A DNA stretch of 50,575 nucleotides from Bacteroidota bacterium. GTDB lineage: Bacteria; Bacteroidota; Bacteroidia; Bacteroidales; JAADGE01. Below the pieces are notes generated by a model. It saw only the letters and a list, made by a program, of their open reading frames with translations. It searched no databases and was not told where the DNA came from. Location of the stretch: the NCBI GenBank assembly GCA_024277895.1, contig JAJRUH010000031.1, forward strand, positions 1-50,575, in the 5' to 3' direction. Made by a program: the position numbers and the translations under genes. Position 1 is the stretch's first letter. Every line of letters starts with the position of its first letter. Positions 5,545 to 42,299 of the stretch are shown here, piece after piece.

Positions 5545-5651
5545 TGAATGTAAAATTTACTGTTTAAAGGATTGTAAAAATATATAAAAAAGCGGAATAT
5601 TTCAATTTTATTTGGTTTAATATACTTTATCATTGATAAAATGACAAAATA

Positions 5652-5683: not shown

Positions 5684-5712
5684 AAGTTTGAATATCATAA
5701 CTGTTTAATATT

Positions 5713-6534: not shown

Positions 6535-6564
6535 AATTCGAATTCATTTATGGAAAATTAATTC

Positions 6565-6600
6565 AGGGCTTCCTTCTATGTGAAGCCTTCATTTATTATT
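6565..6600 (+). terminator. Possible terminator after the universal stress protein gene
   Basis: GGCTTC (6567-6572) and GAAGCC (6582-6587) form a stem with a 9-nt loop, 30 nt after the stop, followed by a T-rich but interrupted tract. Confidence 0.5.
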
Positions 6601-6629
6601 AAAATTATTTCTATAATAAATTACGCCCT

Positions 6630-6661
6630 TCTGATAAAATATCATTAAATTTTTAAATTTG
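6630..6661 (+). promoter_or_regulatory. Promoter of glyS operon
   Basis: TCTG (6630-6633), 20 nt, TAAATTTG (6654-6661). The -7 box is a perfect TAnnTTTG and lies 16 nt before the ATG; the -33 box has one mismatch. The leader would be very short. Confidence 0.5.
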
Positions 6662-6677
6662 CAGCAAAATTAAAACA

Positions 6678-8234
6678 ATGGCAGATACAGATAAATTTAA
6701 AAAAGTTATTGCACACGCAAAAGAATATGGTTTTGTTTTTCAATCAAGCGAAATATATGACGGATTAAGTGCAGTTTATGATTACGGTCAAAACGGTTCG
6801 GAACTGAAAGACAACATCAAACGCGATTGGAAAGATTCAATGGTAAGATTGCATGAAAATATCGTAGGCATAGATTCTGCAATTTTTATGCACCCTACAG
6901 TTTGGAAGGCATCAGGACACGTAGGTGCTTTTAACGACCCCCTTATTGACAATAAAGATTCTAAAAAAAGATACAGAGCCGATGTATTAATAGAAGATTT
7001 TATAGAAAAAATTAATATTAAAATCAATAAAGAAATAGATAAAGCAAAAAAACGCTTCGGCGACAGTTTTGATGAAAAACAATTCCGAGCAACGAACAAT
7101 CGAGTTCTGGAACGTCAAAAAAAGATTGATGAAAATTTAAGTCGTTTTAAAAAAGCTGTTTCTGAAAATAATTTAGCAGAAATTAAGCAAATTATCATTG
7201 ATAATGAGATAACTTGCCCGGTATCCGGCAGTAAAAACTGGACTGATGTTCGTCAGTTCAATTTGATGTTCGACACAAAACTAGGTTCTGTAAGCGAAGA
7301 TGCCGATAAAATTTATTTGCGTCCTGAAACAGCACAAGGAATTTTCGTAAATTACCTTAACGTGCAAAAAACCGGACGAATGAAACTTCCGTTCGGAATT
7401 GCTCAAATCGGAAAAGCATTCAGAAATGAGATTGTTGCCCGACAGTTTATTTTCAGAATGCGCGAATTTGAACAAATGGAAATGCAGTTCTTTATTCGAC
7501 CCGGAGAAGAAGATAAATGGTTCGATTATTGGAAAAACTTAAGAATGCAATGGCATTATATTCTCGGATTAGGCAAAGATAATTATCGTTTTCACGATCA
7601 CGAAAATTTAGCACACTATGCCAAAGCCGCTACTGATATCGAATTTAACTTTCCCTTTGGTTTTAAAGAATTAGAAGGTATTCATTCCCGTACTGATTTT
7701 GATTTATCGCAACATCAAAAATTTTCAGGAAAAAAATTGCAATATTTTGATTCCGAAACTAATTCATCTTATGTTCCTTATGTTATTGAAACATCAATCG
7801 GTGTTGACAGAATGTTTCTTGCCGTACTTTCAACCGCTTTCACGGAAGAAATGATTGAAAAAGAAGACGGAAAAACTGAAATACGTACTGTTTTAAGAAT
7901 TCCTCCCGCTTTGTCACCCGTTAAAGCCGCAATTTTACCTTTGGTAAAAAAAGACGGTTTGCCCGAAAAAGCAGGAGAAGTTCTTAATTTACTGAAATAT
8001 GATTTCAATTGCCAATACGAAGAAAAAGACTCAATAGGAAAAAGATACAGACGGCAAGATGCAATCGGAACACCATTCTGTATAACAATTGATCATAAAA
8101 CATTGAAAGATAATACCGTTACATTAAGATACAGAGACTCAATGAAGCAGGATCGAATAAAAATTGATGATTTGCCTTTACAAATCGATTCGGAAGTTAA
8201 CTTTAAAAATCTGTTTAAACAACTGTCTGTCTGA
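6678..8234 (+). CDS. glyS: Glycyl-tRNA synthetase (alpha2 type, class II)
   Basis: A 518-aa single-chain GlyRS of the homodimeric type, charging tRNA-Gly in the cytoplasm. Class II signatures are motif 2 FRNEIVARQFIFRMREFEQ (starting near residue 248) and motif 3 ETSIGVDRMF (371 onward), with a C-terminal anticodon-binding domain (about 415-515, PVKAAILPLVKKDGLP). The YGF..QSSEIYDGLSAVYDYGQNG opening is characteristic of bacterial/eukaryotic alpha2 GlyRS and differs from the alpha2beta2 GlyQ/GlyS pair, so the symbol glyS (also glyQS) is used in the single-chain sense. An insertion of about 100 residues (Lys/Asp-rich, around 95-180) lies between motif 1 and motif 2, as in other alpha2 enzymes. 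The next gene begins 2 nt after the stop. Confidence 0.96.
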   Translation: MADTDKFKKVIAHAKEYGFVFQSSEIYDGLSAVYDYGQNGSELKDNIKRDWKDSMVRLHENIVGIDSAIFMHPTVWKASGHVGAFNDPLIDNKDSKKRYRADVLIEDFIEKINIKINKEIDKAKKRFGDSFDEKQFRATNNRVLERQKKIDENLSRFKKAVSENNLAEIKQIIIDNEITCPVSGSKNWTDVRQFNLMFDTKLGSVSEDADKIYLRPETAQGIFVNYLNVQKTGRMKLPFGIAQIGKAFRNEIVARQFIFRMREFEQMEMQFFIRPGEEDKWFDYWKNLRMQWHYILGLGKDNYRFHDHENLAHYAKAATDIEFNFPFGFKELEGIHSRTDFDLSQHQKFSGKKLQYFDSETNSSYVPYVIETSIGVDRMFLAVLSTAFTEEMIEKEDGKTEIRTVLRIPPALSPVKAAILPLVKKDGLPEKAGEVLNLLKYDFNCQYEEKDSIGKRYRRQDAIGTPFCITIDHKTLKDNTVTLRYRDSMKQDRIKIDDLPLQIDSEVNFKNLFKQLSV

Positions 8235-8236
8235 TT

Positions 8237-9226
8237 TTGCAAATAGGAAAAATTAATATACAGGAATATCCGCTTCTGTTGGCACCTATGGAAGATATCA
8301 CTGACAGAAGTTTCAGACTGCTGTGCAAATCTTTCGGTGCAGAATTGCTCTATACGGAATTTGTTGCTTCCGAAGCCCTTATCAGAAACATTGATAAATC
8401 ACTGAAAAAGCTGCAAATTGATGAGGCAGAACGCCCTACGGGTATTCAAATCTACGGACACCGGATTGATGCTATGGTTGAAGCCGCAAAAATTGCAGAA
8501 GAAGCAAAACCCGATTTAATCGACATAAATTACGGTTGTCCCGTAAAAAAAATTGCAAATCGCGGTGCCGGTGCCGGAATCTTACGCGATATTCCTAAAA
8601 TGATTGAAATGACCAAAGCAATTGTTAATGCCGTAAAATTACCGGTAACAGTAAAAACGCGTTTGGGTTGGGATTCTGACAATTTAATAATTGATAAAAT
8701 TGCTGAACAACTGCAAGATGCGGGAATAAAGGCTCTTACAATTCACGGCAGAACACGCACACAACTTTATAAAGGAACTTCCGATTGGACATTAATCAAA
8801 AAAGTAAAGCAAAATCCTAACATTCATATTCCGATTATTGGCAACGGTGATATTTTCGACGGAATTTCTGCAAAAAATGCGTTTGATAGATTTGACGTGG
8901 ACGGAATTATGATAGGAAGAGCCGCAATAGGCAAACCCTGGATTTTCAGAGAAATAAAACATTACTTGAAAACAGGTGAAATATTGCCCGAACTGTCAAT
9001 TAGCGAAAAAGTTGAAATTGCTAAACTGCATTTTAAAAAATCAATTGCATTAAAAGAAGGGAAAAAGGGTATTTTTGAAATGAGAAGACATTTTGCACTT
9101 TATTTTAAAGGTTTGAAAAATTTTAAAGAACTCAGATTAAAATTACTAACTTCGACAGATGAAAATCAAATTTCAGATTTACTGGATGAAATAAAACAAA
9201 AATACGGAGAACTTAACAACACTTAA
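8237..9226 (+). CDS. dusB: tRNA-dihydrouridine synthase, DusB type
   Basis: FMN- and NADPH-dependent enzyme (329 aa) that reduces uridines in the tRNA D-loop. It shows APMEDITDRSFR (16-27), the catalytic loop DINYGCPVKKIANRGAGAG with active-site Cys101, KTRLGWD, IHGRTRTQLYKG and IGNGDIFDG, all standard for TIM-barrel Dus proteins. The start is TTG at 8237-8239: the frame contains no ATG upstream of the conserved APM block, and TTG-initiated LQIGKINIQEYPLLLAPM aligns with the usual MKIGNxxLxNPxxLAPM N-terminus. It begins 2 nt after glyS stops and ends 1 nt before the next ATG, so the three genes form one transcript. Very close to the DusB subfamily, though DusA/C substrate preference is not excluded. 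Confidence 0.93.
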   Translation: MQIGKINIQEYPLLLAPMEDITDRSFRLLCKSFGAELLYTEFVASEALIRNIDKSLKKLQIDEAERPTGIQIYGHRIDAMVEAAKIAEEAKPDLIDINYGCPVKKIANRGAGAGILRDIPKMIEMTKAIVNAVKLPVTVKTRLGWDSDNLIIDKIAEQLQDAGIKALTIHGRTRTQLYKGTSDWTLIKKVKQNPNIHIPIIGNGDIFDGISAKNAFDRFDVDGIMIGRAAIGKPWIFREIKHYLKTGEILPELSISEKVEIAKLHFKKSIALKEGKKGIFEMRRHFALYFKGLKNFKELRLKLLTSTDENQISDLLDEIKQKYGELNNT

Positions 9227-9227
9227 A

Positions 9228-11978
9228 ATGCTGAACAATAAATTTTTAATTTTTATTTCGGTTCTTGCAGTTGCAGCGGTCATAGTTGTTTCTTTACAAT
9301 TAGAAAAAAAAGGTCGAAAACTTCCGCCTGTAATAAATGCTCTTCCTTCCGACGTTTCATATTTTTTAGAAACCGATGATTTTAATTATTTTTTAAATAA
9401 AATTTCAAAAAATGAAGATCTGAAAGAAATTTTAGGAACAAATGAAATTACTGAAAAAACCTTTCAAGACATTACTTTTTTAGATTCCATACTTCATCAA
9501 AACAGGAAAATAAAACATTTTTTCAACCAAAAAAGTGTTATTATTTCAGCACACCCGACAGGAATGGGGAAAAATGAATTTTTATTTATTGCGGGGGCAA
9601 ATTCAGATGATAAAAACATTATAAAACAAACTATAAAAAATATTGAATCTTCTGCAAATTTCAGCTCTTCAAATTTTGCCGGAGCCGTAATTATTAAACA
9701 AAATTTCAAAAATTACAAAGCAATTTATTATACTTTTTACCGGGATTATTTTCTGATGAGTTTTTCGGAAATTATGATTCAAAAATCTATAAAAAATATA
9801 AACAGCGGAGCCGGGCTGGCTGATAATAAAGCATTTAAAAAATTATATCAAAAGACTGAGAACCAAGATGATGCTCAATTTTTTATTAATTACGAAACAC
9901 TTTTTTCAAATACAGGAAACATTTTTAAAAATTCTTTTAAAAACGAATTGAAACTTTTACAAAATACGGCTTATTGGTCTGCTTTTAATATTTCTTTAAA
10001 ACGAAAACATCTTAAATTAACCGGACACACAATTTTAAAACCCGAAATGCAGTTTCTTTCAATTTTTAAAAACACAAAACCTCAAAAAAATAAAGTTTTA
10101 AACCTGTTACCGGAAAAAACATCCTTTTTTCTGACATTAAATATTAAAAGCGGTAATTATTTTAAATATAAATATGAAGATTTTTTAGCAAAAACGAAAC
10201 AGTTAAATGACTTTCAGATTCAATTGGCAGAATTTTATAAAACATACAAAATAAAAGAAGATGAAACTGATTTATATTCCGTTACCGATAATGAAATTGC
10301 ACTAATAAGAGAAGATATAAATAAAAACGGGAAAAATCCGAGAAGTTTTATTTTTATAAATTTTAACGATAAATCTAAAACCGAAAAATTTTTTAATCAG
10401 GTAATTTCTTCATATTGTAAAAAGAATAATATTGAAACTCCTTCATTCTATGAAACATATAAGACCGAAGAAGACAATTATACAATAGCAAAACTTCCGA
10501 TTGATAATATACCCGAAATATTCTACGGAATAATTTTCCAAAATGTAAATGCAAAATATTACACTTTAATTGATGATTTTATAATTTTCGGAAAATCTGC
10601 TTCCGATTTAAAGGAAATAATTAATTCATTTGAAAAAGATAAAACTTTTAAACGAAAATCCCCCAATTACGAATTTATAAAATCTCTTCCGGATGAATCC
10701 AATATCAGTTTTTATATAGACATAAGTCATTCTGCAAAAAATATTGAGAATTCTTTACAAAAAAAGTTATCTGAAAAATTTGATAAAAATCTTTCTTCAT
10801 TAAAACGCGTTCAGGGTCCGGCTGTTCAAATTATTTTTGATTCTTACCCGGCATATACAACGGTTGACATAGGATTAAATTCATTAACACAAGAAATTTC
10901 GGAAACCGTTTGGGAAGTGCGATTAGATACATTGATTACAACAAAGCCTTTTATTGTAATAAATCATAATACCGATGAAAAAGAAATTGTTATTCAAGAC
11001 GCCGCAAATAAAATTTATCTTATTGATAAAAACGGTAAAATTTTGTGGACAAGACAATTAGACGGAAAAATAATCAGTAATATTTATCAAATTGATTATT
11101 ATGAAAATAAAAAACTGCAACTTCTTTTTAATACTCAAAGTAAAATATATTGTATCGACAGAAAAGGAAATTGGCTGGAGGGTTATCCCGTAAAATTAAA
11201 ATCAAAAGCAACTTGCGGTATTTCTTTATTTGACTATGATCAAAACAGAAACTACAGAATTTTTGTGGCTTGTGCCAACAAATCGGTTTATTTATTTGAT
11301 AAAAACGGTGAAATAATTTCGGGATGGAATTTCGATAAAACAAAAAGTTATGTTACGCAACCAATAAAACATTTTAAAAACGATGATAAAGATTATATTG
11401 CTTTCAGAGATCGAAACAACTTATATTTACTTAACAGAAAAGGAGAAATACGCGTAAAACCCGAAGTAAACATATCAATTTCAAAAAATACGGAAATTTG
11501 GTTTACGGAAGATAACATTAACGATAAAGCACATTTTTCAATAAGCAATCCCGCCGGCATTGTTTATTCTGTTTACGAAAACGGTAAAATAAAAAAAACT
11601 ACCTTTAAAACATACACAAGAGACCATTATTACGTTTATAAAGATATAACGGGAGATCAAGTTCCGGAATATATTTTTACGGATATAAATCAAACAGACG
11701 TTTATGACGGAATAAGCAAAAAACGTTTATTTTCATATACTTACGATGAAGATTTAAAAACAAATGTTACAATATATGAATTTAATGAAAATGACATCCG
11801 TCTCGGAACGAGTTCCGAAAATAAATTATATTTAATAAACAATAAAGGAAACTTATGCAAAGGATTTCCTCTAACAGGAACAGGATTATTCAGTATTACA
11901 GTATTTGATAACAACCCTGAATTTTCTCTGATTACCGGAAATAAAGATAATTACTTGTATAAATATTACATTAAATAA
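9228..11978 (+). CDS. Membrane-anchored protein with C-terminal propeller-like repeats
   Basis: A 916-aa protein of unknown function. An N-terminal membrane anchor (about 4-23) is followed by LPPVINALPSDVSYFLETDD, the kind of opening seen in DUF3352-type proteins; about 25-555 is a large periplasmic region without recognised catalytic residues. From about 560 to the end there are repeated beta-propeller-like units, each with a Y-(L/C)-(I/F)-D/N-(K/R)-x-G-(K/N/E) hairpin (YLIDKNGKILW, YCIDRKGNWLEGY, YLFDKNGEIISGW, YLLNRKGEI, YLINNKGNLCKGF), as in PQQ/BamB or FG-GAP-like proteins. Low cysteine and high Asn/Lys/Ile content match its neighbours. The ATG lies 1 nt after dusB, so it is co-transcribed with glyS-dusB, an odd partner for an envelope protein. 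The propeller suggests a scaffold or binding role. Confidence 0.6.
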   Translation: MLNNKFLIFISVLAVAAVIVVSLQLEKKGRKLPPVINALPSDVSYFLETDDFNYFLNKISKNEDLKEILGTNEITEKTFQDITFLDSILHQNRKIKHFFNQKSVIISAHPTGMGKNEFLFIAGANSDDKNIIKQTIKNIESSANFSSSNFAGAVIIKQNFKNYKAIYYTFYRDYFLMSFSEIMIQKSIKNINSGAGLADNKAFKKLYQKTENQDDAQFFINYETLFSNTGNIFKNSFKNELKLLQNTAYWSAFNISLKRKHLKLTGHTILKPEMQFLSIFKNTKPQKNKVLNLLPEKTSFFLTLNIKSGNYFKYKYEDFLAKTKQLNDFQIQLAEFYKTYKIKEDETDLYSVTDNEIALIREDINKNGKNPRSFIFINFNDKSKTEKFFNQVISSYCKKNNIETPSFYETYKTEEDNYTIAKLPIDNIPEIFYGIIFQNVNAKYYTLIDDFIIFGKSASDLKEIINSFEKDKTFKRKSPNYEFIKSLPDESNISFYIDISHSAKNIENSLQKKLSEKFDKNLSSLKRVQGPAVQIIFDSYPAYTTVDIGLNSLTQEISETVWEVRLDTLITTKPFIVINHNTDEKEIVIQDAANKIYLIDKNGKILWTRQLDGKIISNIYQIDYYENKKLQLLFNTQSKIYCIDRKGNWLEGYPVKLKSKATCGISLFDYDQNRNYRIFVACANKSVYLFDKNGEIISGWNFDKTKSYVTQPIKHFKNDDKDYIAFRDRNNLYLLNRKGEIRVKPEVNISISKNTEIWFTEDNINDKAHFSISNPAGIVYSVYENGKIKKTTFKTYTRDHYYVYKDITGDQVPEYIFTDINQTDVYDGISKKRLFSYTYDEDLKTNVTIYEFNENDIRLGTSSENKLYLINNKGNLCKGFPLTGTGLFSITVFDNNPEFSLITGNKDNYLYKYYIK

Positions 11979-12026: not shown

Positions 12027-13250
12027 ATGAAAAATCAGATAAAATCTTTTATCTCGGTTGTATTAATATTTATTGTAATTATTTCTTTCGATTCATGCAG
12101 AAAAAATTTTTCGCTTAACGAATTTGATAATTTAACAACCGATTCCCTTCATTTCGAAGGCAGTTTTGCCGCTCCGATTGTAAATACCGAACTAACGCTG
12201 ATAAATTTCTTGCCGAAAACAGATTCCTCACTTTGGGCAGAAGTGGACGCTGACAATCTGATACATCTGAGAATGTACTATAAAAATTTATTATCACCGA
12301 CTTTTAATGAAATATTTCATATAGCTCCGGCACCGGCAGGAACTCCGGTTCCGGCAGATACCTTTGCCATACAGACAGATACCTCACGAATGAAAGTTTA
12401 TAATAAGTTATTGTCCGGCAAACTCTTTTTCCAAAATCCGTCAATAACCTTTCACATAGACAATTATATTCCGATTGTAACATTTTTCAAGATAGATACC
12501 TTAACGTTTCATCAATCTGACGGCACCGCATTAACCCATACAAGTGCAAATGAATTTTCAATTGCAGCTCCGACTGTTGCGGGAACAAGCGAGCATACGG
12601 ATATTGTTCTTGATACGACGGAAGTTCCTCTTCTTTCGCAGGTATTTTCTCCTGTTCCGCAATTTATATCATTTTATCTGTCTTCCGGAAGTCATACACC
12701 GCAAACATTGCCGTATGCTGTTACCGGAGACGAAAAAATGAACATTGATGTTGATATTGACCTTCCTTTAGATGCCAAATTAGATACAATTGTAATGGCT
12801 GATACAATGAACTTTACATTATTTAATGACGAAAGAATAAAATCAGCAACCTTAAAAATAAAATTTGATAACGGTTTCCCGATTGACGGGTTTACACAAA
12901 TATATTTTACCGACTCAACAGCAACAGGAGGAACAGGAAATATTATTGACTCTGTTTTTACGGATACGAATCTAATTAATATTTCTGAAGAAGGATGGCA
13001 TCTTGAATCTGCAGAGACTGACGCTCAGGGTATTGTAACTGTTCCGCACGAAAGTGATATATTTATTTTCTTAAATCAAAACAGAATTAAAAATTTAATT
13101 CAACGACATGCTTCTAAAATGATTATTAGGGGAAATTTAAATTCCTATATGCAAGACACCGGATTATTTATAAAAATTCTCGGAGACTATACAATGGGAG
13201 TTCAAATTGCCGTAAAACTTGATTTTGAAGCATCAACAAATAACATATAA
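12027..13250 (+). CDS. Hypothetical lipoprotein
   Basis: A 407-aa protein with a lipoprotein signal peptide: hydrophobic residues 8-20, then ISFDSC with Cys24 as the lipidation site. The mature part is rich in Thr/Asp/Pro and beta-strand-like, with no recognised enzyme motif. It includes repeated (S/T)-D-T-x-x-(I/L) segments and an apparent Ala/Pro-rich loop APAPAGTPVPADT near 109. It probably sits in the outer membrane or faces the periplasm. The DUF5723-like gene that follows starts 16 nt after its stop, so the two are likely an operon and may act together at the outer membrane. I do not recognise the family. Confidence 0.75.
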   Translation: MKNQIKSFISVVLIFIVIISFDSCRKNFSLNEFDNLTTDSLHFEGSFAAPIVNTELTLINFLPKTDSSLWAEVDADNLIHLRMYYKNLLSPTFNEIFHIAPAPAGTPVPADTFAIQTDTSRMKVYNKLLSGKLFFQNPSITFHIDNYIPIVTFFKIDTLTFHQSDGTALTHTSANEFSIAAPTVAGTSEHTDIVLDTTEVPLLSQVFSPVPQFISFYLSSGSHTPQTLPYAVTGDEKMNIDVDIDLPLDAKLDTIVMADTMNFTLFNDERIKSATLKIKFDNGFPIDGFTQIYFTDSTATGGTGNIIDSVFTDTNLINISEEGWHLESAETDAQGIVTVPHESDIFIFLNQNRIKNLIQRHASKMIIRGNLNSYMQDTGLFIKILGDYTMGVQIAVKLDFEASTNNI

Positions 13251-13266
13251 CCTTTTTCCGAAAATA

Positions 13267-14745
13267 ATGAAACAGTTTAAACATATATTCACAATTATTC
13301 TGATAAGTACCCTTTTTTTCTCTTCCGCATTTTCGCAAAGATTAACTTCTTATTGGATGCAACATCTGCCGCAAGGCACATACCTGAACCCGGCAAAGCA
13401 AACCGGTTGTAAAGTTTTTATCGATATTCCCGTACTTCCGAACTTTGACATAAATGTTACGCATTCCGGATTCACAATTAACGATGCAATTAAACCGAGA
13501 CCGTATACGCAGAATTCATTTATGATTGATTTAGACGGTATTGAAAAGGCATTAAAAACAGGCAATAACATTAATTTTGAAACAGAATTTTCTTTGCTGA
13601 ATATCGGCATTACTTTAAGAAATGATATGTACGTCAGTTTCGGTATGAACTATAAATTCTCTGAATATTTTGAATATCCGAAAGCTTTAATAGAACTGAG
13701 AAGAGGAAATTATCGATTAAACGAAACTCCTTTAGCTTTCGACTTTAAACAAAATTTAGATTTACACAGAGAAATTTATATAGGTGTGTCAAAAAACTTT
13801 AATAATACACTTTATTTAGGCGCAAAATTAAAATATCTCTCCGGTTATGCCAATATAAAAACAAGTACAATGAATTTGGAATGGTACACCGATATAAAAA
13901 CCGAAGCTATGTATGATTGGACATTTAATTCCGATTTCGATATAAAAGCTGCAAGTATTATTCCTTGGAATTTTACGGATTCTTTAGGGCAAATTAACGG
14001 AATTAACATTGATACCACATTACTTAACAACCCTGCTTCCGATTTATCAAGTTTTATTTTCCCGAAGAATACAGGTCTCGGTGTTGATTTAGGAATTGAA
14101 TATAATCTGAATAATCAATTAACTTTATCGGCATCTTTAATTGATTTCGGCTTTATCAAATGGAAAACAAGCCCTAAAATAATGACTCAAAAAGCGACAT
14201 TTAAGTTTTCAGGATTAGATATAGCAAAATATATCGGTAATTTAAATGATACAACCGGAGCCAATACAACACTCGGTGAAAAAATTAAAAATGATATGAT
14301 TGACACCCTCTTGAATGTTTTTAATCCGAATATTGAAGAAACATCATACACAACGGCCTTAAACTCAAAACTTTATCTCGGTGCAAACTTAAAAATTACC
14401 GATTGGCTCAGTGCAGGCTTATTATACAGAGGTCTGTTTTTTAATAAAAGCTTGATTTCTTCTTATACATTTTCTGCCAATACCAATTTTTTTAAAGCTT
14501 GGTCATATTCCGTTTCTTATTCAATTATGAATGCTTCGGCAAATAATATCGGAATGGGCTTGTCATACAAAGTCGGGCCGTTTCAAATGTACCTGATAAC
14601 CGATAATATTGCCGCTCCTTTTTGGGCTGTTAACGAAAGCACTTTTTCCGATAATATGCTGAAAAATACCAAAACAGTAAATTTCAGTTTCGGTTTAAAC
14701 TTTTTAATTTGCGGGCATAAATACGATATCGGTTTAATGGAATAA
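13267..14745 (+). CDS. DUF5723-like outer-membrane protein
   Basis: A 492-aa exported protein. A signal peptide (MKQFKHIFTIILISTLFFSSAFSQ) is followed by RLTSYWMQHLPQGTYLNPAKQ, which resembles the conserved N-terminus of DUF5723 proteins of Bacteroidota. The rest is made of alternating strands typical of a PorV/FadL-like outer-membrane barrel (YVSFGMNYKFSEYF, LYLGAKLKYLSGYANI, LTLSASLIDFGFIKW, WLSAGLLYRGLFF, NIGMGLSYKVG). The ATG at 13267 is chosen because the signal peptide starts there; 16 upstream in-frame codons overlap the previous gene and add a non-signal leader. Function unknown; partnership with the upstream lipoprotein is inferred from spacing. Confidence 0.65.
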   Translation: MKQFKHIFTIILISTLFFSSAFSQRLTSYWMQHLPQGTYLNPAKQTGCKVFIDIPVLPNFDINVTHSGFTINDAIKPRPYTQNSFMIDLDGIEKALKTGNNINFETEFSLLNIGITLRNDMYVSFGMNYKFSEYFEYPKALIELRRGNYRLNETPLAFDFKQNLDLHREIYIGVSKNFNNTLYLGAKLKYLSGYANIKTSTMNLEWYTDIKTEAMYDWTFNSDFDIKAASIIPWNFTDSLGQINGINIDTTLLNNPASDLSSFIFPKNTGLGVDLGIEYNLNNQLTLSASLIDFGFIKWKTSPKIMTQKATFKFSGLDIAKYIGNLNDTTGANTTLGEKIKNDMIDTLLNVFNPNIEETSYTTALNSKLYLGANLKITDWLSAGLLYRGLFFNKSLISSYTFSANTNFFKAWSYSVSYSIMNASANNIGMGLSYKVGPFQMYLITDNIAAPFWAVNESTFSDNMLKNTKTVNFSFGLNFLICGHKYDIGLME

Positions 14746-35298: not shown

Positions 35299-35326
35299 AA
35301 GGTCGTATTTTTACGACCTTTTTTTA
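35299..35326 (+). terminator. Shared terminator of trxB and mnmA
   Basis: AAGGTCGTA (35299-35307) pairs with TACGACCTT (35312-35320), T-run to 35325. The mnmA stop codon overlaps the T-run, so the hairpin also follows mnmA on the minus strand, although there the run after it is mixed A/T. Confidence 0.85.
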
Positions 35327-36514
35327 TGCAATAACACCTGACCCGATTAACTCATCGTCAAGATAAAATGCTGCAAATTGTCCGGAAGTTATTCCTCTTT
35401 GTGCATTTTCAAAAACCAAATAAATACCTTCTGTTTGTCTGTATAAAATTGCTTTTTGTAAAGGTTGTCTATAACGAATTCTGGCTGATATTTTTAAAGA
35501 TTTACCTTCCGGAACTTCTAAATCCGGACGAACCCAATGGACTTCTTCTTCTGAAATAAATAAAGCTTTACGGAATAATCCCGGATGCTGTTTCCCCTCC
35601 CCTATATAAACAATATTTTTCTTCACGTCAATATCCAAAACAAACGGCGGTTCTTTAAGTCCGCCCACACCTATTCCGCGCCTTTGTCCGATTGTAAAAA
35701 AATGTGCTCCTTGATGTTTGCCGATAATTTTTCCGTCTTCGGGTGTATAGAAATAAGGTTCGGATAATAATTTCAGTTGTTCGTCAAATTTTAAATTCTT
35801 ATAATCTTTTGTTTTTTGAAATTCCGGAAGTTCATCGGGTATCAAAATAATATTTCCTTCTTTTGCCTTAAGTTTTTGCTGTAAAAAAGTCGGTAAATCT
35901 ACTTTCCCGACAAAACAAATTCCTTGCGAATCCTTTTTATGTGCACTTGCCAAACCCAGTTTATCGGCAATTTCTCTGACTTCCGATTTTTGTAATTCAC
36001 CTATCGGAAATAAAGATTTTTCAAGTTGCTTTTGCGAAAGTTGGCATAAAAAATAAGATTGGTCTTTACTATTATCTTTCCCTGCAAGAAGTCTGTAATA
36101 TTCCTTTTTGTCTTTTATTATAGTTTCTTTTCTGCAATAATGTCCTGTTGCAACAAATTCGGCTCCGAGTTCAAGAGCTTTGTCCAAAAAAACATCAAAT
36201 TTTATTTCTCTGTTGCAAAGAACATCAGGATTAGGTGTTCTGCCTTTCTCATATTCAGAAAACATATAATCAACCACACGCTTTGCATAAATTTCACTAA
36301 AGTCAACAGTTTCAAACGGTATATCCAATTTTCTCGCAACCAATTGAGCTACCAAAACATCATCATCACTCGGGCAAGTTCCTTCAATAACCCCCTCAGT
36401 ATCATGCCAATTAATCATATAAATCGCATACACATCATAGCCTTGTTTTTTGAGCAAATATGCTGCAACACTTGAATCTACGCCTCCCGATAAACCAACA
36501 ACTACTTTTTTCAA
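35324..36514 (-). CDS. mnmA: tRNA-specific 2-thiouridylase MnmA
   Basis: A 396-aa enzyme that thiolates U34 of tRNA-Lys/Glu/Gln (s2U). PP-loop SGGVDSS (9-15), catalytic nucleophile Cys100 in NPDVLCNREIKFD and second catalytic Cys200 in SQGICFVG are present; residues about 265-390 form the C-terminal beta domains. The start is TTG (36512-36514) directly before KKVVVGLSGGVDSS, since no in-frame ATG lies upstream; family proteins begin a few residues before this loop. A -7 box (36537-36544) lies 23 nt upstream. No other s2U gene is seen in the window. Confidence 0.95.
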   Translation of the reverse strand: MKKVVVGLSGGVDSSVAAYLLKKQGYDVYAIYMINWHDTEGVIEGTCPSDDDVLVAQLVARKLDIPFETVDFSEIYAKRVVDYMFSEYEKGRTPNPDVLCNREIKFDVFLDKALELGAEFVATGHYCRKETIIKDKKEYYRLLAGKDNSKDQSYFLCQLSQKQLEKSLFPIGELQKSEVREIADKLGLASAHKKDSQGICFVGKVDLPTFLQQKLKAKEGNIILIPDELPEFQKTKDYKNLKFDEQLKLLSEPYFYTPEDGKIIGKHQGAHFFTIGQRRGIGVGGLKEPPFVLDIDVKKNIVYIGEGKQHPGLFRKALFISEEEVHWVRPDLEVPEGKSLKISARIRYRQPLQKAILYRQTEGIYLVFENAQRGITSGQFAAFYLDDELIGSGVIA

Positions 36515-36573: not shown

Positions 36574-36604
36574 TTTGAACTTTAATGTATGAGAAGTATC
36601 TTTA
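36574..36604 (+). promoter_or_regulatory. Promoter of the GlpD / flavoprotein / FGGY operon
   Basis: TTTG (36574-36577), 19 nt, TATCTTTA (36597-36604; one mismatch in the last base). It overlaps an upstream in-frame ATG (36589) and so decides the downstream start at 36628. Confidence 0.6.
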
Positions 36605-36627
36605 CTGAAATTAGTTTTAAATTCAAA

Positions 36628-38265
36628 ATGAAATTAAAAAGATACATCGAAGAACACAAGAATCAAAAATTTGATTTAATTATCATCGGCGGCGGGATAA
36701 CCGGTGCTGCAGTAGCTTATGCAGCATCAAGCCGCGGTCTTAAAGTCGCTCTTTTTGAAAAAAAAGATTATGGAGGAGCAACTTCTGCAGCAACTTCAAA
36801 ATTAATTCACGGAGGTTTGAGATACCTGGCAAATATGGAATTTAAATTAGTTCGTGAATCTCTTCAAGAAAGACGAATATTAGGAAATATTGCACCTAAT
36901 TTTGTTTATCCCTTACCGTTTATGTTTCCTAATTATGTGAAATGGAAAGGTAATATGTGGAAAATGATGATCGGTATGTTTTTATATGACACACTTTCAT
37001 ATGATAAAAAATATACCTGGGATAAAAGTAAGCGTCTTTCAAACCATAAAACATTATCTTATAATAAAACAATTGAAGCCGAACCGAATATTATTAAAGA
37101 AAATTTAAGAAATTCAACCGTATTTTACGATTACCAAAGTATTTTCCCTGAGAGGCTTACATTGGCATTTATTAAATCAGCCGTTGAATACGGTGCTAAA
37201 GTTTCCAATTATTCAAAGGTTGAAAATTTTAGTTTCAGCAAATCAAATAAAATTAACGGAGTGGTTGTCAAAGATGTTTTTTCCGATGAAACCAAAATAA
37301 TTTATGCTCCTTTAACAATTAATTGCGGAGGAACTTGGGCTGATATTATTTTAAACATAGCATCAAAAACAGAATCCTCTCATAAAGTTTTGCGGTCAGA
37401 AGGAATTCATATAATCACTAAAAAAATTGCCGGAGAACATGTTATCTCGTTACAAAAAAAGAAAGGCGGACATATGATGATTATGCCTTGGCGCGGACAT
37501 TCATTAATCGGAACAACCGATAAAGAATATAACGGTTCGCCCGATAATTATAAAGTTTCTAAACAAAGTTTATATGATGTAATAGATGCCGTAAATAATA
37601 ATTATAATAAAAAAATCTCTTATGATGATATTATACATGCTTACGGCGGCTTACGTCCCTTGGTTGATGATCAAACGGAAGATTCTTATAACACATCCCG
37701 GCGATACGAAGTTTTAGATAACGCAACAGAAGGTATTGATGGGTTAATTACGGTTGAAGGGGGTAAATTTACAACCAGCAGAAATTTAGCTTATCATGTA
37801 ATGAAATTAATTCAAAAAAAAACCAATAAAAAACTCTCGGAATCATTTTCATATAAATTATATCTGTCAGGTTGTGAAATTAAGGATATGAATGAATTTA
37901 TGCGAAAACAACACCTGCAATATGATGATTTTTTCGGTATTGAAACGGTTGAATATATAAGCAGAAATTACGGAACTCAGAGTCATACCGTTTTTCAATT
38001 TGCAATAGAAAATCCTGAATATAATAAAGTTGTAAGCCATGACGGAGAATTATTATCAGAAGTTGTTTACGCAATAAAACATGAAAGTGCAATGACATTA
38101 AAAGATATTTTATTGAGGCGCACCGGAATAGGAACTCTCGGAAAGCCAAATGACGACATTCTGCAAAAAGTTATGAAAGTTGCTTCCGAAATGTTAAATT
38201 GGACAGATGAGCGAAAACAAAACGAATACAATTCAATAATTGAACTTTATACATTGCCGAGTTAA
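36628..38265 (+). CDS. FAD-dependent glycerol-3-phosphate dehydrogenase (GlpD/GlpA-like)
   Basis: A 545-aa flavoprotein of the GlpD family, oxidising sn-glycerol-3-phosphate (or a related polyol phosphate) to dihydroxyacetone phosphate with electrons to quinone. The FAD-binding dinucleotide fold DLIIIGGGITGAAVAYAAS, the ATSAATSKLIHGGLRYL block (Arg of the substrate site), PWRGHSLIGTTDKEY and a C-terminal DUF/GlpA-C helical domain (about 420-540) are visible. The ATG at 36628 is used because an upstream ATG (36589) lies inside the predicted promoter. The flavoprotein gene follows after 11 nt. GlpD relatives include erythritol-4-phosphate dehydrogenase, so the exact substrate is open. Confidence 0.88.
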   Translation: MKLKRYIEEHKNQKFDLIIIGGGITGAAVAYAASSRGLKVALFEKKDYGGATSAATSKLIHGGLRYLANMEFKLVRESLQERRILGNIAPNFVYPLPFMFPNYVKWKGNMWKMMIGMFLYDTLSYDKKYTWDKSKRLSNHKTLSYNKTIEAEPNIIKENLRNSTVFYDYQSIFPERLTLAFIKSAVEYGAKVSNYSKVENFSFSKSNKINGVVVKDVFSDETKIIYAPLTINCGGTWADIILNIASKTESSHKVLRSEGIHIITKKIAGEHVISLQKKKGGHMMIMPWRGHSLIGTTDKEYNGSPDNYKVSKQSLYDVIDAVNNNYNKKISYDDIIHAYGGLRPLVDDQTEDSYNTSRRYEVLDNATEGIDGLITVEGGKFTTSRNLAYHVMKLIQKKTNKKLSESFSYKLYLSGCEIKDMNEFMRKQHLQYDDFFGIETVEYISRNYGTQSHTVFQFAIENPEYNKVVSHDGELLSEVVYAIKHESAMTLKDILLRRTGIGTLGKPNDDILQKVMKVASEMLNWTDERKQNEYNSIIELYTLPS

Positions 38266-38276
38266 ATTCATAAAAT

Positions 38277-39902
38277 ATGAAAAAAACATACAGAGAAATA
38301 TTAAAATGGGGAGATAAAAGAGAACAAAAAATTGATGATATTACTTTGAATATTCTTAAAAAAATATTCTCTTTAAGCAAACAAGATTTAACCGAAAAAC
38401 ATCTTTTAGGTGATAATGAAATTAAATTAGAAAAAAAAACATCTTTATCCGAAGTGCAAATAAATGATTTAAAAAAAATTGCAGGAGATGAAAATATTCA
38501 TACAGATGATTTTTCTCGTGCAAATTTTTCTTACGGGAAATATTACACTGAACTTTTACTGTTAAGAAAAGGCTTAATCGCAAATCCTCCTGACGCTGTT
38601 ATTGCACCTAAATCTCATAATGATGTTGTTATGTTAGTAAATTATTGTAATGAGAATATGATTCCGATTATTCCGGTGGGCGGACAATCAAGTGTTACAA
38701 AGGGTGTAGAGACACCAAAAGGCGGTATTGCTTTGGATCTGACAAAACATTTAAATCAAGTTCTTGAAGTAAATACCATAAATATGACTGTAAAAGTTCA
38801 AGCCGGAATGTTCGGACCCGCATTTGAAAAATATCTCAATAAATTAGGATATTCTTGCGGTCATTTCCCGCAATCTTTTGAATTCTCAACAGTCGGAGGT
38901 TGGGTAGCGGCAAAAGGTGCCGGACAAGCATCAACAGGTTACGGAAGAATTGATGACATGATTGTTGCACTTAAAATTGTTACTCCCGAAGGAATAATTG
39001 AAAACAAAGATTATCCCTCAAAGGCAGAAGCTTGGGACACATACCCCCTATTTATAGGTTCCGAAGGTACATTGGGAGTTATTACCGAAATAACAATGAA
39101 AATTAGAAAATTACGTCCTGAAAATACTCAATATGCTTCTTTTATTTTCAAATCTTTTGAAAATGCAGTTTATGCAATGCGAAAAATTATGCAAGCTGAT
39201 TTCGGCAAACCACATTTATTCCGTATTTCTGATCCCGAAGAAACTGATATTGCGTTTAAAACAAAAGGTTTTGAAGAGAAATTCTCAAATAAAGTTCTGA
39301 AAGCGTTGGGATATTTACCCGGAAAAAGGTGTTTAATGTTCGTATCTGTTGAAGGTGATACCCGTTATACAAAATTTGTAAAAAGACAAATAAAAAAAAC
39401 TGCAAAAAAATGTAAAGGTTTTTATATCGGAAGCGGTCCTACAAAAAACTGGCTGGAACAACGATATTCAAGTGCATATATGAGAGAACCTCTGATGGAT
39501 TTGGGTGTGATGACAGACACAGTAGAAACAGCAGTAACATGGGATAATCTTATTACTCTTTGGAAATCTGTCAGGGCATATGTAAAACAAAGGAATAAAA
39601 CGGTTTTTATGTCGCACATTTCACATGTATATTCAAACGGTGCAAATTTGTATTTTACATTTTTAAGTCCGACGGAAAAAAGGAATGAAGAAAATGATTA
39701 TACACAATTTCATAAAGGATTGATTGATACAATTTATAATAACAAGGGTTCATTATCCCACCATCACGGTATCGGCAGAGTATTAGCTCCATGGATGGAA
39801 GCTGCTGTTTCAAGGGAAGTAATAAGTGCAATGCAAGCAATAAAAAATCATTTTGATCCGAACGGAATTATGAATCCCTCAGGCATGCTGGGTTTAAAAT
39901 AA
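38277..39902 (+). CDS. FAD-linked oxidase, alkyl-DHAP synthase-like
   Basis: A 541-aa VAO/PCMH-fold flavoprotein. The FAD-binding region includes PPDAVIAPKSHNDV (about 101-114), PIIPVGGQSSV (129-139), PKGGIALDLTKH, VQAGMFGPAFE and STVGGWVAAKGAGQAS. The C-terminal part has SHHHGIGR with His495-His496-His497, the His-triplet of alkyldihydroxyacetonephosphate synthase, and ends HFDPNGIMNPSG, as in AGPS and in glycolate/D-lactate oxidases (GlcD). AGPS exchanges the acyl chain of acyl-DHAP for a fatty alcohol, making ether lipid. The N-terminal KWGDKREQK resembles the weakly conserved W-G-W-G patch of AGPS. The substrate is unproven; it sits between a GlpD-type enzyme and an FGGY kinase. Confidence 0.75.
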   Translation: MKKTYREILKWGDKREQKIDDITLNILKKIFSLSKQDLTEKHLLGDNEIKLEKKTSLSEVQINDLKKIAGDENIHTDDFSRANFSYGKYYTELLLLRKGLIANPPDAVIAPKSHNDVVMLVNYCNENMIPIIPVGGQSSVTKGVETPKGGIALDLTKHLNQVLEVNTINMTVKVQAGMFGPAFEKYLNKLGYSCGHFPQSFEFSTVGGWVAAKGAGQASTGYGRIDDMIVALKIVTPEGIIENKDYPSKAEAWDTYPLFIGSEGTLGVITEITMKIRKLRPENTQYASFIFKSFENAVYAMRKIMQADFGKPHLFRISDPEETDIAFKTKGFEEKFSNKVLKALGYLPGKRCLMFVSVEGDTRYTKFVKRQIKKTAKKCKGFYIGSGPTKNWLEQRYSSAYMREPLMDLGVMTDTVETAVTWDNLITLWKSVRAYVKQRNKTVFMSHISHVYSNGANLYFTFLSPTEKRNEENDYTQFHKGLIDTIYNNKGSLSHHHGIGRVLAPWMEAAVSREVISAMQAIKNHFDPNGIMNPSGMLGLK

Positions 39903-39997
39903 ATACCAAAAGTCAATGATTTGTTAATCTTAAATAATTGAAATATTCTCACTTAAAAAAACAGAATTAATAATCGGTTGTCTTAAAAATTTTCAAA

Positions 39998-41563
39998 ATG
40001 ACAAAAACAGAATTAATACTTTCAATTGATGTCGGAACGCAGTCCGTAAGGGCAGTAATTATTGATTTAAAGGGAAATATCACAGATATTGAAAAAACCG
40101 TAATTGAAGCCTATTACTCAAATCAACCCGGTTGGGCGGAGCAATATCCTGATTATTTTTGGAAAAACTTATCAGAAACTTGCCGAAAGCTGTTTTCAAG
40201 AACCGCAATTCCGAAAAATAGTATCAAAGCTGTAACTTTAACAACACAAAGAGGAACAGTTGTAAATTCTGACAAAAACGGAAAACCGTTAAGACCGGCA
40301 ATAAGTTGGCTTGATCAACGACAGGCAAAAGTTCATAAATATCCGAAAGGTCTGGCAAGAACTTCATTGAGAATGATTAACATGAAGGAGGCTGTTACCC
40401 ATGCGGTTAAAAATGCAGAATGTAATTGGATAATTCAAAACCAACCGGAAATTTGGAAGAAAACAGAGAAATTTATTTACTTATCGGGATGGCTAACTTA
40501 TAAACTTACCGGAAATTTTACAGATTCTGTCGGTAATATGGTAGGTTATATGCCTTTCGATTATAAAAAACAGAGATGGTCCTCCGCAAATCACAGAAAT
40601 ACAAAAATGTTTCCGGTAAGTGCCGATAAACTTTGTTCACTGGTAAAACCGGGAGAAATTTTAGGTTACATCACAAAAGAAACAGAAAAACTTACAGGTA
40701 TTCCCGAAGGTTTGCCTCTTTTTGCCGCAGCATCCGACAAGGCATCAGAAGTTCTCGGATCGGGTGTTTATACACCTGAAGTCGCTTGTTTAAGCTACGG
40801 AACAACAGCAACTGTCCAAACAACACATAAAAATTATTATGAAGTCATTCCGTTCTTTCCGGCATACCCCGGTGCAATTCAAGATTATTTTAATACAGAA
40901 ATAATGATTTTCAGAGGTTTTTGGATGATTAATTGGTTTAAAGAAGAATTCGGATATAAAGAAATTGAAATTGCCGAACAAAAAGGTCTTGAAGCCGAAC
41001 AGATTTTTGATGAAATGATTAAAGATATTCCGCCCGGTTCTATGGGCTTAACTCTTCAGCCATACTGGTCGCCGGGAGTTAAAGTTCCCGGAACGGAAGC
41101 AAAAGGTGCAATTATCGGTTTCGGAGACGTACATACAAGAGCACACATATACAGAGCAATTCTTGAAGGTTTAGCCTATGCCTTAAAAGAAGGATTACAA
41201 AGAACTGAAAAAAGAACAAAAATTAAAATTAAAAAAATTATTGTTTCCGGCGGAGGTTCTCAAAGCGAACAAGCTATGCAAATGACCGCCGACATCTTTA
41301 ACCTGCCGGTTGAAAGACCTCACACCTATGAAACTTCCGCTTTAGGGGCAGCGATTAATGCCGCAGTAGGAATGAAATATTTCAATTCTTACGAAGAAGC
41401 CGTAAAAAATATGTGCCGCACAGGAAGCCGCTATACACCCAATGAAAAAAACAGAATAATTTATGAAAAATTATATACTAAAGTCTATTATAAAATGTAC
41501 GGAAGATTAAAAGGTTTATATCATGTTATCAGAGATATTACAGGCTATCCGGAAAAAATATAA
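39998..41563 (+). CDS. FGGY-family carbohydrate kinase
   Basis: A 521-aa ATP-dependent kinase of the FGGY family (glycerol, xylulose and related polyols). N-terminal phosphate-1 motif SIDVGTQSVRAVII (9-22), TLTTQRGTVV (80-89), sugar-site WLDQR (104-108), catalytic Asp247 in ASDKASEVLGSG, and C-terminal SGGGSQSEQAMQMTADI for ATP binding are intact. It matches neither GlpK nor XylB signatures well enough to choose a substrate (Trp-104 rather than the GlpK WQDxR form). It starts 95 nt after the flavoprotein with no terminator between, so it is likely in the same operon. Confidence 0.85.
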   Translation: MTKTELILSIDVGTQSVRAVIIDLKGNITDIEKTVIEAYYSNQPGWAEQYPDYFWKNLSETCRKLFSRTAIPKNSIKAVTLTTQRGTVVNSDKNGKPLRPAISWLDQRQAKVHKYPKGLARTSLRMINMKEAVTHAVKNAECNWIIQNQPEIWKKTEKFIYLSGWLTYKLTGNFTDSVGNMVGYMPFDYKKQRWSSANHRNTKMFPVSADKLCSLVKPGEILGYITKETEKLTGIPEGLPLFAAASDKASEVLGSGVYTPEVACLSYGTTATVQTTHKNYYEVIPFFPAYPGAIQDYFNTEIMIFRGFWMINWFKEEFGYKEIEIAEQKGLEAEQIFDEMIKDIPPGSMGLTLQPYWSPGVKVPGTEAKGAIIGFGDVHTRAHIYRAILEGLAYALKEGLQRTEKRTKIKIKKIIVSGGGSQSEQAMQMTADIFNLPVERPHTYETSALGAAINAAVGMKYFNSYEEAVKNMCRTGSRYTPNEKNRIIYEKLYTKVYYKMYGRLKGLYHVIRDITGYPEKI

Positions 41564-41642: not shown

Positions 41643-42299
41643 ATGAAATTTTTTATCGATACGGCAAATCTCGAACAAATTAAAGAAGCACAAGAACTCG
41701 GAATACTTGACGGCGTTACCACCAACCCTTCGCTTATGGCAAAAGAAGGAATTAAAGGTGCCGAAAACATTAACAATCACTATAAAACAATTTGCGAAAT
41801 TGTTGACGGCGACGTAAGTGCCGAAGTAATTGCAACCGATTTGGAAGGTATAATTAAAGAAGGCGAAGCACTCGCCGCCCTGCATCCTCAAATTACGATT
41901 AAAGTTCCGATGATTAAAGAAGGAATAAAAGCAATTAAATATTTTTCCGACAAAGGACTTAAAACAAACTGCACATTGGTATTTTCCGTCGGACAAGCCC
42001 TGCTTGCCGCAAAAGCCGGAGCAACTTATGTCTCTCCTTTTATCGGAAGATTAGACGATATTTCAACCGACGGTGTTGAATTAATTAAACATATTGTCGA
42101 AATGTATAATTATTACGGATACAAAACACAAGTCCTTGCAGCATCAATCAGGCATACACAACACATTGTTCAATGCGCGCAAGTCGGTGCCGATGTGGTA
42201 ACCGCACCATTAAATGCCATTCTCGGATTATTAAAACATCCGCTTACCGACAACGGATTAGAAAAATTTCTGGCAGATTATCATAAATTAAACGGATAA
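41643..42299 (+). CDS. Small transaldolase (TalC/FSA family)
   Basis: A 218-aa class I aldolase. Schiff-base Lys87 in [17 protein letters not shown] (6-16), [14 protein letters not shown] (23-36) and [11 protein letters not shown] (129-139) match the TalC / fructose-6-phosphate aldolase subfamily. The residue equivalent to Gln59 of E. coli FSA is Glu61 (SAEVIATD), as in true transaldolases, while Tyr129 keeps the FSA-type Tyr; on balance transaldolase is favoured. It would transfer dihydroxyacetone between sugar phosphates in the pentose phosphate pathway. It follows the FGGY kinase by 79 nt but has its own -7 box. Confidence 0.85.

What the first reader, a model, noticed from the sequence alone, without database searches (positions are those of the whole stretch)
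36574..41563. GlpD-AGPS-like-FGGY kinase module: possible bacterial ether-lipid or polyol-phosphate pathway
Three genes in line encode a GlpD-type dehydrogenase (makes DHAP), a PCMH flavoenzyme with the AGPS His-His-His motif (His495-497), and an FGGY kinase of undetermined substrate. Seen: motifs and 11- and 95-nt gaps. Known: AGPS exchanges an acyl for an alkyl chain on acyl-DHAP, and GlpD produces DHAP. Inferred: the set feeds a glycerol backbone into alkyl-DHAP. Alternatives are glycolate/D-lactate-like oxidation or an erythritol-type pathway, since erythritol kinase is FGGY and erythritol-4-P dehydrogenase is GlpD-like.
Basis: partly seen in the sequence, partly recalled or inferred. Interest (0 to 1): 0.62.

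Follow-up and report, generated by a model that had tools for sequence, protein, structure and literature searches.

The report
Bacterial glycerol-ether breakdown gene trio
Three adjacent bacterial genes, one of them a relative of the enzyme that builds ether lipids in animal cells, look more like a set for taking ether-linked glycerol compounds apart without oxygen than for building them, although their real substrate is not yet known.

Summary
Three co-directional genes encode a GlpD-type dehydrogenase, an AGPS-family flavoprotein and an FGGY kinase, with gaps of 11 and 95 nt. The flavoprotein joins eukaryotic AGPS in the tree, keeps the AGPS residues I checked, and lies away from GlcD and D-lactate dehydrogenase. 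The genome has another GlpD and a separate GlpK-type kinase. In a Bacteroidota order GlpD lies beside the flavoprotein in 20 of 22 readable genomes and the kinase in 16 of 23.

A bacterial AGPS synthesis operon carries a fatty-alcohol maker fused to an acyltransferase; a similar one occurs at L072 of this phylum, but nothing like it is among the neighbours of this clade. Instead, some related loci carry FadR regulators, lipid kinases, glycerophosphodiesterases or GMC oxidoreductases.

Best reading: AGPS chemistry run backwards. Kinase, GlpD and flavoprotein split a 1-O-substituted glycerol, perhaps an alkylglycerol, into DHAP and an alcohol without oxygen. Substrate, order and direction are inferred, not shown.

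The parts
36589..38265 (+). GlpD-type FAD dehydrogenase (558 aa as called; start probably 36628); proposed to oxidise C2 of a 1-O-substituted glycerol 3-phosphate
   Evidence: residues matching E. coli R54, H233, R317, K354 kept; H80N, K230E, S314G, Y358S changed in 22 or 23 of 24 GlpDs of the order set
38277..39902 (+). AGPS-family flavoprotein (541 aa); proposed to split the C1-O bond of the resulting 1-O-substituted DHAP
   Evidence: phmmer 3e-92 to 2uuu and 8e-68 to 4bby; residues H196, T205, R316, R403, Y459, H495-497; tree; the first 37 Foldseek rows are AGPS chains
39998..41563 (+). YgcE-type FGGY kinase (521 aa), without the GlpK pocket; proposed to phosphorylate the substituted glycerol
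   Evidence: pocket positions R85, G86, W104, A136, D247, K248, T272

Best explanation
The trio is a catabolic set that runs AGPS chemistry backwards. Step 1: the FGGY kinase phosphorylates the free end of a 1-O-substituted glycerol, most likely an alkylglycerol from ether lipids. Step 2: the GlpD-type enzyme oxidises C2 to the ketone and hands the electrons to quinone. Step 3: with the ketone now next to the C1-O bond, the AGPS-family flavin forms an N5 adduct with the three-carbon unit and expels the alcohol; water or a carboxylate then releases DHAP or acyl-DHAP. Net result: an ether bond is cleaved without oxygen, giving an alcohol and a glycolytic intermediate. Shown here: enzyme families, retained active-site residues, gene linkage, and lipid-type neighbours in some relatives. 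Inferred: substrate, order of steps and direction.
For: AGPS membership by sequence, residues, tree and fold. The gene unit is kept across the order: GlpD in 20 of 22 readable genomes, kinase in 16 of 23, although the genome has another GlpD and a kinase with the GlpK pocket. FadR_C regulators lie directly upstream of the unit in 6 loci of 4 family codes. FadR_C is rare in the order (13 of 344 genomes), but 8 of the 11 hits with E below 1e-10 are in genomes with this flavoprotein, 5 of them beside it (Fisher p about 2e-8 by genome, 9e-7 by family code; with all 13 hits 2e-7 and 9e-6). Of 7 other class-level genomes, 6 have GlpD beside the flavoprotein, 2 a YegS-type lipid kinase, 3 a GDPD, 4 a GMC oxidoreductase near by, 1 an aldehyde dehydrogenase (Pfam on representatives). 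GlpD and YegS-type kinase flank AGPS in Streptomyces and Tsukamurella. Kinase and GlpD have mostly smaller residues at several sites near conserved ones. No relative of the L072 reductase-acyltransferase near the clade.
Against: No substrate is shown. FGGY kinases are not known to me for long-chain substrates, and the closest kinase family outside the clade (E. coli YgcE) sits in a cassette with transporters, as for a soluble substrate. FadR_C is absent from the window's own genome and from G595. Acyl-CoA dehydrogenase does not track the trio: two genomes of the same genus without it have 6 matches like the window's genome, and carriers G490 and G567 have one, G640 none. The kinase is missing from the visible DNA in 7 of 23 genomes. 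Some AGPS-GlpD genomes do have better reductase-type matches (G868 136 bits, G567 104 bits). No transporter is constant: POT-family genes in L018 and L024, a TonB receptor cluster in L098-L100. The kinase model was poor, mean pLDDT 59.
Confidence: 0.45

Rival explanations
1. Ether-lipid synthesis: GlpK/GlpD-like enzymes supply DHAP, an unlinked enzyme acylates it, and AGPS swaps the acyl for an alkyl chain.
For: The flavoprotein is an AGPS-family member with the residues of the synthetic enzyme. Myxococcus AGPS takes a minor part in making ether lipids (PMC9131029, passages), and a survey paper reads bacterial Agps homologues as a capacity for ether lipids (PMC11868695, passages). An unlinked reductase cannot be excluded.
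Against: The layout AGPS, reductase plus acyltransferase, epimerase-like gene is present in L072 of the same phylum but not near this clade. GPAT_C 0 of 28 genomes, though G356 itself also lacks it. Best reductase-type match in the own genome 76 bits. A quinone-linked GlpD opposes the reductive step, and the genome has another GlpD and a GlpK-type kinase.
Confidence: 0.2
2. Breakdown of a water-soluble glycerol conjugate (for example a glycosylglycerol) by the same kinase-dehydrogenase-AGPS logic, as may happen in the E. coli ygc cassette, on whose function the one paper search I made listed no study.
For: The kinase shares its D-K pocket signature with YgcE-type kinases (25 of 25 window- and YgcE-type rows, 0 of 6 others). 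Those lie near an AGPS-like YgcU, an SDR and transporters in E. coli, Enterococcus, Ilyobacter and Priestia, with a G3P-type antiterminator gene near by in E. coli, Enterococcus and S. clavuligerus.
Against: The window's flavoprotein groups with AGPS, not YgcU (100/98). No transporter is constant beside the trio. FadR and lipid-type neighbours occur in its relatives.
Confidence: 0.22
3. Polyol (erythritol-type) or plain glycerol catabolism with an AGPS-like side enzyme.
For: FGGY kinase plus GlpD-like enzyme is the erythritol layout (recalled). Novosphingobium has GlpD, an AGPS-like gene and an FGGY kinase in a sugar setting.
Against: An EryB-annotated plasmid protein is no closer than ordinary GlpDs (2e-47, 31.7%, against 6e-74 for the best-scoring GlpD; 30 of 437 records were listed). 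The kinase lacks the GlpK pocket. A polyol path needs no AGPS active site.
Confidence: 0.08

Closest known systems
Eukaryotic AGPS (Dictyostelium 2uuu; guinea pig 4bby)
   Same: Same family, fold and active-site residues
   Different: About 28-34% identity; here set beside a kinase and a dehydrogenase rather than working with GNPAT and FAR1
Myxococcus xanthus MXAN_1676-1674 operon (PMC9131029, passages)
   Same: Contains an AGPS
   Different: Its partners are a FAR1-like plus GNPAT-like protein and an NAD-epimerase; that layout resembles L072 here, not the trio
Actinobacterial GlpD-TetR-AGPS-lipid kinase cluster (Streptomyces L028, Tsukamurella L106; Rv2249c-Rv2252 listed in a table of PMC4564863, one passage)
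   Same: GlpD and AGPS with a kinase; L028 and L106 AGPS fall in the joint clade
   Different: YegS-type lipid kinase in place of FGGY; GlpD on the other strand; TetR regulator
E. coli ygc cassette (ygcU, ygcE, ygcW and others)
   Same: Kinase with the same pocket signature near an AGPS-like flavoprotein
   Different: SDR and ETF-type genes instead of GlpD, transporters, flavoprotein outside the AGPS clade
Alkylglycerol monooxygenase (AGMO)
   Same: Proposed end result, cleavage of the alkylglycerol ether bond
   Different: AGMO is a tetrahydrobiopterin-dependent monooxygenase, called the only known enzyme for the job (PMC7911779 abstract and passages; PMC3617469 abstract start)

Membership tests
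AGPS (alkylglycerone-phosphate synthase) | Closest solved relatives are AGPS, over most of the length | tested here: met
   (query 63-536) and 88: AGPS entries rank first; D-lactate dehydrogenase follows at 1e-28 by sequence
AGPS (alkylglycerone-phosphate synthase) | Active-site residues R419, Y578 (mutants named in PDB titles) and H300, T309, R515, H615-617 (recalled) | tested here: met
   all present in the window; in the 28-row clade R419, Y578 and H300 28 of 28, R515 27 of 28, HHH 27 of 27 rows with letters there; T309 is Ser in 6 rows (L096, L098-L101, L103)
AGPS (alkylglycerone-phosphate synthase) | Groups with known AGPS in a tree | tested here: met
   47-row clade at 100/98; inside it the window's 28 rows (100/99) and the 19 rows with both eukaryotic AGPS (99/96)
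AGPS (alkylglycerone-phosphate synthase) | Acyl/alkyl exchange activity on DHAP | not testable with these tools
   Needs enzyme assay
Myxococcus-type AGPS synthesis operon | Linked FAR plus GNPAT-like acyltransferase | tested here: not met
   no ORF of 645 resembles the L072 fusion but itself (L072 used as stand-in; the Myxococcus sequence was not searched)
GlcD / D-lactate dehydrogenase | Groups with GlcD; GlcD score | tested here: not met
   GlcD NCBIfam score 174.5 against a cut-off of 567.9
GlpD | DAO and DAO_C domains, catalytic residues | tested here: met
   but below the NCBIfam equivalog cut-off, 315.4 of 360 bits
Glycerol kinase GlpK | Glycerol pocket R83 E84 W103 Y135 D245 Q246 F270 (roles recalled) | tested here: not met
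   window has R G W A D K T; the own C22 kinase has the full GlpK set
Erythritol pathway (EryA, EryB) | GlpD-like enzyme closest to EryB | tested here: inconclusive
   one EryB-annotated hit in the 30 of 437 records listed, no closer than GlpDs; no tree made
YgcE-type FGGY kinases | Shared pocket signature and common clade | tested here: met
   25-row clade 99/97 (midpoint root, long branches flagged); D-K pair in 25 of 25, none of 6 others

The most novel reading that the evidence does not exclude
An oxygen-independent ether-cleaving pathway in bacteria: kinase, GlpD and AGPS run in reverse turn alkylglycerols (and possibly lyso-ether phospholipids in the GDPD-bearing relatives) into DHAP and a fatty alcohol. 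AGPS chemistry would then be used in nature in both directions, with the kinase slot filled by either an FGGY or a YegS-type enzyme.
Probability: 0.38. Interest if true: 0.85.

Novelty: new variant of a known kind. Interest (0 to 1): 0.6.

Why it matters
Papers name one tetrahydrobiopterin-dependent monooxygenase, AGMO, as the only known cleaver of alkylglycerol ethers. Ether lipids also occur where there is no oxygen, so an anaerobic route would fill a gap in the carbon cycle. It would also caution against reading every bacterial AGPS homologue as a sign of ether-lipid synthesis, as a recent survey does, and would give a testable role to the E. coli ygc genes and to GlpD-AGPS-lipid kinase clusters in actinobacteria.

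Tried and rejected
GlcD or D-lactate-like oxidation was rejected on residues, tree and fold. Ordinary glycerol use was rejected because another GlpD and a kinase with the GlpK pocket exist in the genome and the trio kinase's pocket differs. Inclusion of the downstream transaldolase-type gene was rejected: in the 94%-identical relative L020 the genes after the kinase are different.

Beta-oxidation as a correlate was tried and does not discriminate: Acyl-CoA_dh_1 is found in 366 of 393 genomes, and two genomes of the same genus without the trio have as many matches as the window's genome. The PF07993 search was of limited use: it rings in all 28 genomes and all 14 controls, so only score and length were read, from a capped list. 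GPAT_C was absent from all 28 genomes including G356, so that search weighs little. The kinase fold model was too poor to use and was not searched. The f39 flavoproteins (L067-L071, L073) were set aside: they have EHH instead of HHH and Pro at the R515 site.

Rows dropped: AGPS-cluster ORFs under 380 aa were left out of the alignment and tree. The eukaryotic rows were partial (the part aligned), so the N-terminal WG motif could not be tested in them. Not all neighbour genes were identified: Pfam was run on 28 proteins from the related loci and the rest were only clustered by BLAST. Paper searches that gave nothing on such a trio; the library is open-access only.
Full report
What is there. The window is contig 6 of a 3.19-Mb, 183-contig genome, of Bacteroidota or a near relative judging by the titles of its nearest named relatives (Chlorobiota, Bacteroidales, Lutibacter, Draconibacterium, and one titled Gastranaerophilales). 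One search shows GlpD-like 36589-38265, flavoprotein 38277-39902 and FGGY kinase 39998-41563, all on the + strand. Upstream, an mnmA-like gene (name by reading) at 35324-36514 runs the other way; downstream a TAL_FSA gene starts at 41643. That gene is not part of the unit: in the 94%-identical relative L020 the downstream genes differ.

The flavoprotein is an AGPS-family member. phmmer against solved structures gives Dictyostelium AGPS at 3e-92 and guinea pig AGPS at 8e-68, then D-lactate dehydrogenase at 1e-28. A Foldseek search with a middling model (pLDDT 69) ranks 37 AGPS chains before anything else. Residues matching guinea pig H300, T309, R419, R515, Y578 and H615-617 are all present (window H196, T205, R316, R403, Y459, H495-497). 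R419 and Y578 are named as mutants in PDB titles; the weight given to the others I recall. E. coli GlcD has none of R419, R515, Y578 or H615-616, only H617. In the tree (63 rows) the window's clade of 28 rows joins a 19-row clade holding both eukaryotic AGPS at 100/98. E. coli YgcU and its kin, the Paracoccus type, the f39 type and GlcD with the own genome's C11 protein fall outside (midpoint root). An N-terminal WG motif (window KWGD, residues 10-13) recurs in most rows of the joint clade that reach that far, is KYG in seven rows of the window's own clade (L096-L102), and was not seen in the YgcU or Paracoccus types. Long branches (GlcD, L074, L112, L081, L108) are flagged by the program.

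The dehydrogenase and the kinase are not the only ones of their kind. The genome has a second DAO_C protein (C105) and a second FGGY kinase (C22). The C22 kinase has the full E. coli GlpK pocket, whereas the window's has R-G-W-A-D-K-T in place of R-E-W-Y-D-Q-F (roles in GlpK recalled). All 25 window-type and YgcE-type kinases of that call have the D-K pair, none of the 6 others. Positions that touch glycerol in GlpK (E84, Y135, F270) are replaced, mostly by smaller residues, though S. clavuligerus has Phe at 84; a larger substrate would fit, which is inference. In GlpD the residues R54, H233, R317 and K354 (roles recalled) are kept, while H80N, K230E, S314G and Y358S are near-constant in the order set (22 or 23 of 24 rows), some close in sequence to the kept ones.

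The unit is conserved but patchy. A profile of the clade finds the flavoprotein in 24 of 393 genomes of the order and 8 of 395 of the class, and the single sequence finds 9 of 395 in the phylum at E 1e-40, own genome included each time. Two genomes of the window's own genus lack it (G497, G678). Of the 24 order genomes, GlpD is adjacent in 20, not adjacent in 2 (G740, G429) and not readable in 2 (G455, G779, contig ends). The FGGY kinase is adjacent in 16 (in G740 after a gap of about 0.7 kb), absent from the visible DNA in 7 (G455, G558, G429, G567, G477, G718, G547; in G718 only 1.3 kb is visible), and not readable in 1 (G640). Whether those seven have it elsewhere was not searched. In nine named records GlpD is present in 9, the kinase in 8 with one not readable. 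Two of the nine (L020, L024) appear to be the same contigs as G595 and G555 (equal lengths).

Neighbours point to lipids and to breakdown, in part of the relatives. A FadR-type regulator lies directly upstream and co-directional in L098, L099, L100, L101, L104 (order) and L081 (class); all six match FadR_C above cut-off. In the order FadR_C occurs in only 13 of 344 genomes; of the 11 with E below 1e-10, 8 carry this flavoprotein (G404, G410, G455, G477, G520, G547, G617, G640), 3 do not (G443, G647, G650); in 5 of the 8 it lies beside the unit, in 3 on another contig. Fisher's exact test gives p about 2e-8 by genome and 9e-7 by family code (6 of 7 against 5 of 113); with all 13 hits 2e-7 and 9e-6. 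I assumed that all 24 carriers lie in the 344 and that the sample has 120 families; the E cut was chosen after seeing the list, and genomes are not independent. Against this, the window's own genome and G595 have no FadR_C. A Crp/Fnr-like gene precedes GlpD in six other loci (cluster c4; cNMP_binding in the three tested). A TonB receptor cluster stands next to FadR in the three f66 loci (c37; one tested), and a POT-family transporter gene lies upstream in L018 and L024.

Outside the order, six of the seven other class-level genomes have the flavoprotein beside a GlpD (not G1053; in G840 the GlpD reads as two overlapping frames). Partners are a YegS-type lipid kinase (G822, G924) or a GDPD phosphodiesterase (G868, G1091, G840). 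A GMC oxidoreductase lies next to or near the unit in four (G822, G868, G1091, G840), and an aldehyde dehydrogenase lies some 7 kb away in G840 (Pfam on representatives). Streptomyces and Tsukamurella plasmids carry GlpD, TetR, AGPS and a YegS/DAGK kinase. The tuberculosis bacterium's Rv2249c-Rv2252 are listed as glpD1, regulator, flavoprotein and diacylglycerol kinase in one table (PMC4564863, one passage); I did not look at that sequence. In L095 the GlpD belongs to the lineage of the class-level lipid-type operons although its AGPS and FGGY kinase are of the window type, so the two layouts seem to exchange parts.

The synthetic layout looks different. The review PMC9131029 (passages) describes the Myxococcus operon as AGPS, a FAR1-like plus GNPAT-like protein and an NAD-epimerase-type protein, with only a minor loss of ether lipids when AGPS is disrupted. 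L072 in this phylum has AGPS, a protein with NAD_binding_4 and Acyltransferase domains, and an epimerase-like gene (by reading); its AGPS pairs with the guinea pig enzyme at 100/100. No other ORF among 645 in 57 stretches resembles the L072 fusion. The best PF07993 match in the own genome is 76 bits in a 342-aa frame against 213 bits in G356; G868 reaches 136 and G567 104, so an unlinked reductase is not excluded.

Mechanism. Inference from known chemistry, partly recalled: AGPS attaches DHAP to flavin N5 after loss of the C1 substituent and then adds another. Read backwards, a 1-O-alkyl-DHAP can lose its alcohol. To make alkyl-DHAP from an alkylglycerol one needs a phosphorylation and an oxidation at C2, which is what a glycerol-type kinase and a GlpD do. 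The trio thus contains the steps needed for alkylglycerol + ATP + quinone + water to DHAP + alcohol. GlpD feeding quinone makes the oxidative direction the natural one. The same logic could serve glycosylglycerols or other glycerol conjugates. The E. coli ygc cassette, with the same kinase type, an AGPS-like YgcU, an SDR and transporters, may be such a case; a G3P-type antiterminator gene is near it in E. coli, Enterococcus and S. clavuligerus.

Weak points. No activity is shown. The kinase type is shared with a cassette that looks made for a soluble substrate. The kinase is missing from 7 of 23 readable loci. Acyl-CoA dehydrogenase genes do not track the trio. A usable structural model of the kinase pocket was not obtained. 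Novosphingobium combines GlpD, an AGPS-like gene and an FGGY kinase that groups with GlpK in a sugar-type setting, so the three gene types alone do not prove lipid use.

Literature. Ten paper searches showed no description of a GlpD-AGPS-FGGY unit or of an anaerobic alkylglycerol-cleaving enzyme in the rows listed; subscription papers are largely missing from the library. PMC7911779 (abstract and passages) and PMC3617469 (abstract start) call AGMO the only known ether-cleaving enzyme. PMC11868695 (passages) reads bacterial Agps homologues as a potential to make alkenyl ethers.

Verdict. Observation confirmed; AGPS assignment upheld; synthetic interpretation less likely than a catabolic one. 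Best explanation 0.45, soluble glycerol conjugate 0.22, synthesis 0.20, polyol 0.08.

Noticed in passing
L072 (G356:C54:1-6072): A Myxococcus-like ether-lipid synthesis layout in this phylum: AGPS, a reductase plus acyltransferase fusion and an epimerase-like gene.
   Followed up: partly
L032 (E. coli K-12 ygc region, ygcU 8965-10419, ygcE 12897-14375): The ygc cassette pairs an AGPS-like flavoprotein with a kinase of the window's type, near a G3P-type antiterminator gene; similar layouts occur in Enterococcus, Ilyobacter, Priestia and S. clavuligerus.
   Followed up: partly
L067-L071, L073 (family code f39): A separate AGPS-like type with EHH instead of HHH and Pro at the R515 site, in a constant cluster with four other genes (c5-c8) that were not identified by any search.
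   Followed up: no
L095 (G410:C323), GlpD 6596-8185: A trio whose GlpD comes from the lineage of the class-level lipid-type operons while AGPS and kinase are of the window type.
   Followed up: partly
L112 (Novosphingobium plasmid), 5408-9854: GlpD, AGPS-like gene and FGGY kinase in line in a sugar-type setting; the kinase there groups with GlpK.
   Followed up: partly
L098-L100 (family code f66): A TonB-dependent receptor gene (c37) stands next to the FadR-GlpD-AGPS-kinase unit in three related genomes; one copy was confirmed by Pfam. It could import the substrate.
   Followed up: partly
window 41643-42299: Transaldolase-type gene 79 nt downstream on the same strand, absent at that place in relative L020.
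   Followed up: partly
L029 and L110 (Moraxella and Acinetobacter plasmids): An AGPS-clade gene with a gamma carbonic anhydrase and an acyl-CoA synthetase gene near transposase genes, identical flavoprotein in two genera.
   Followed up: no
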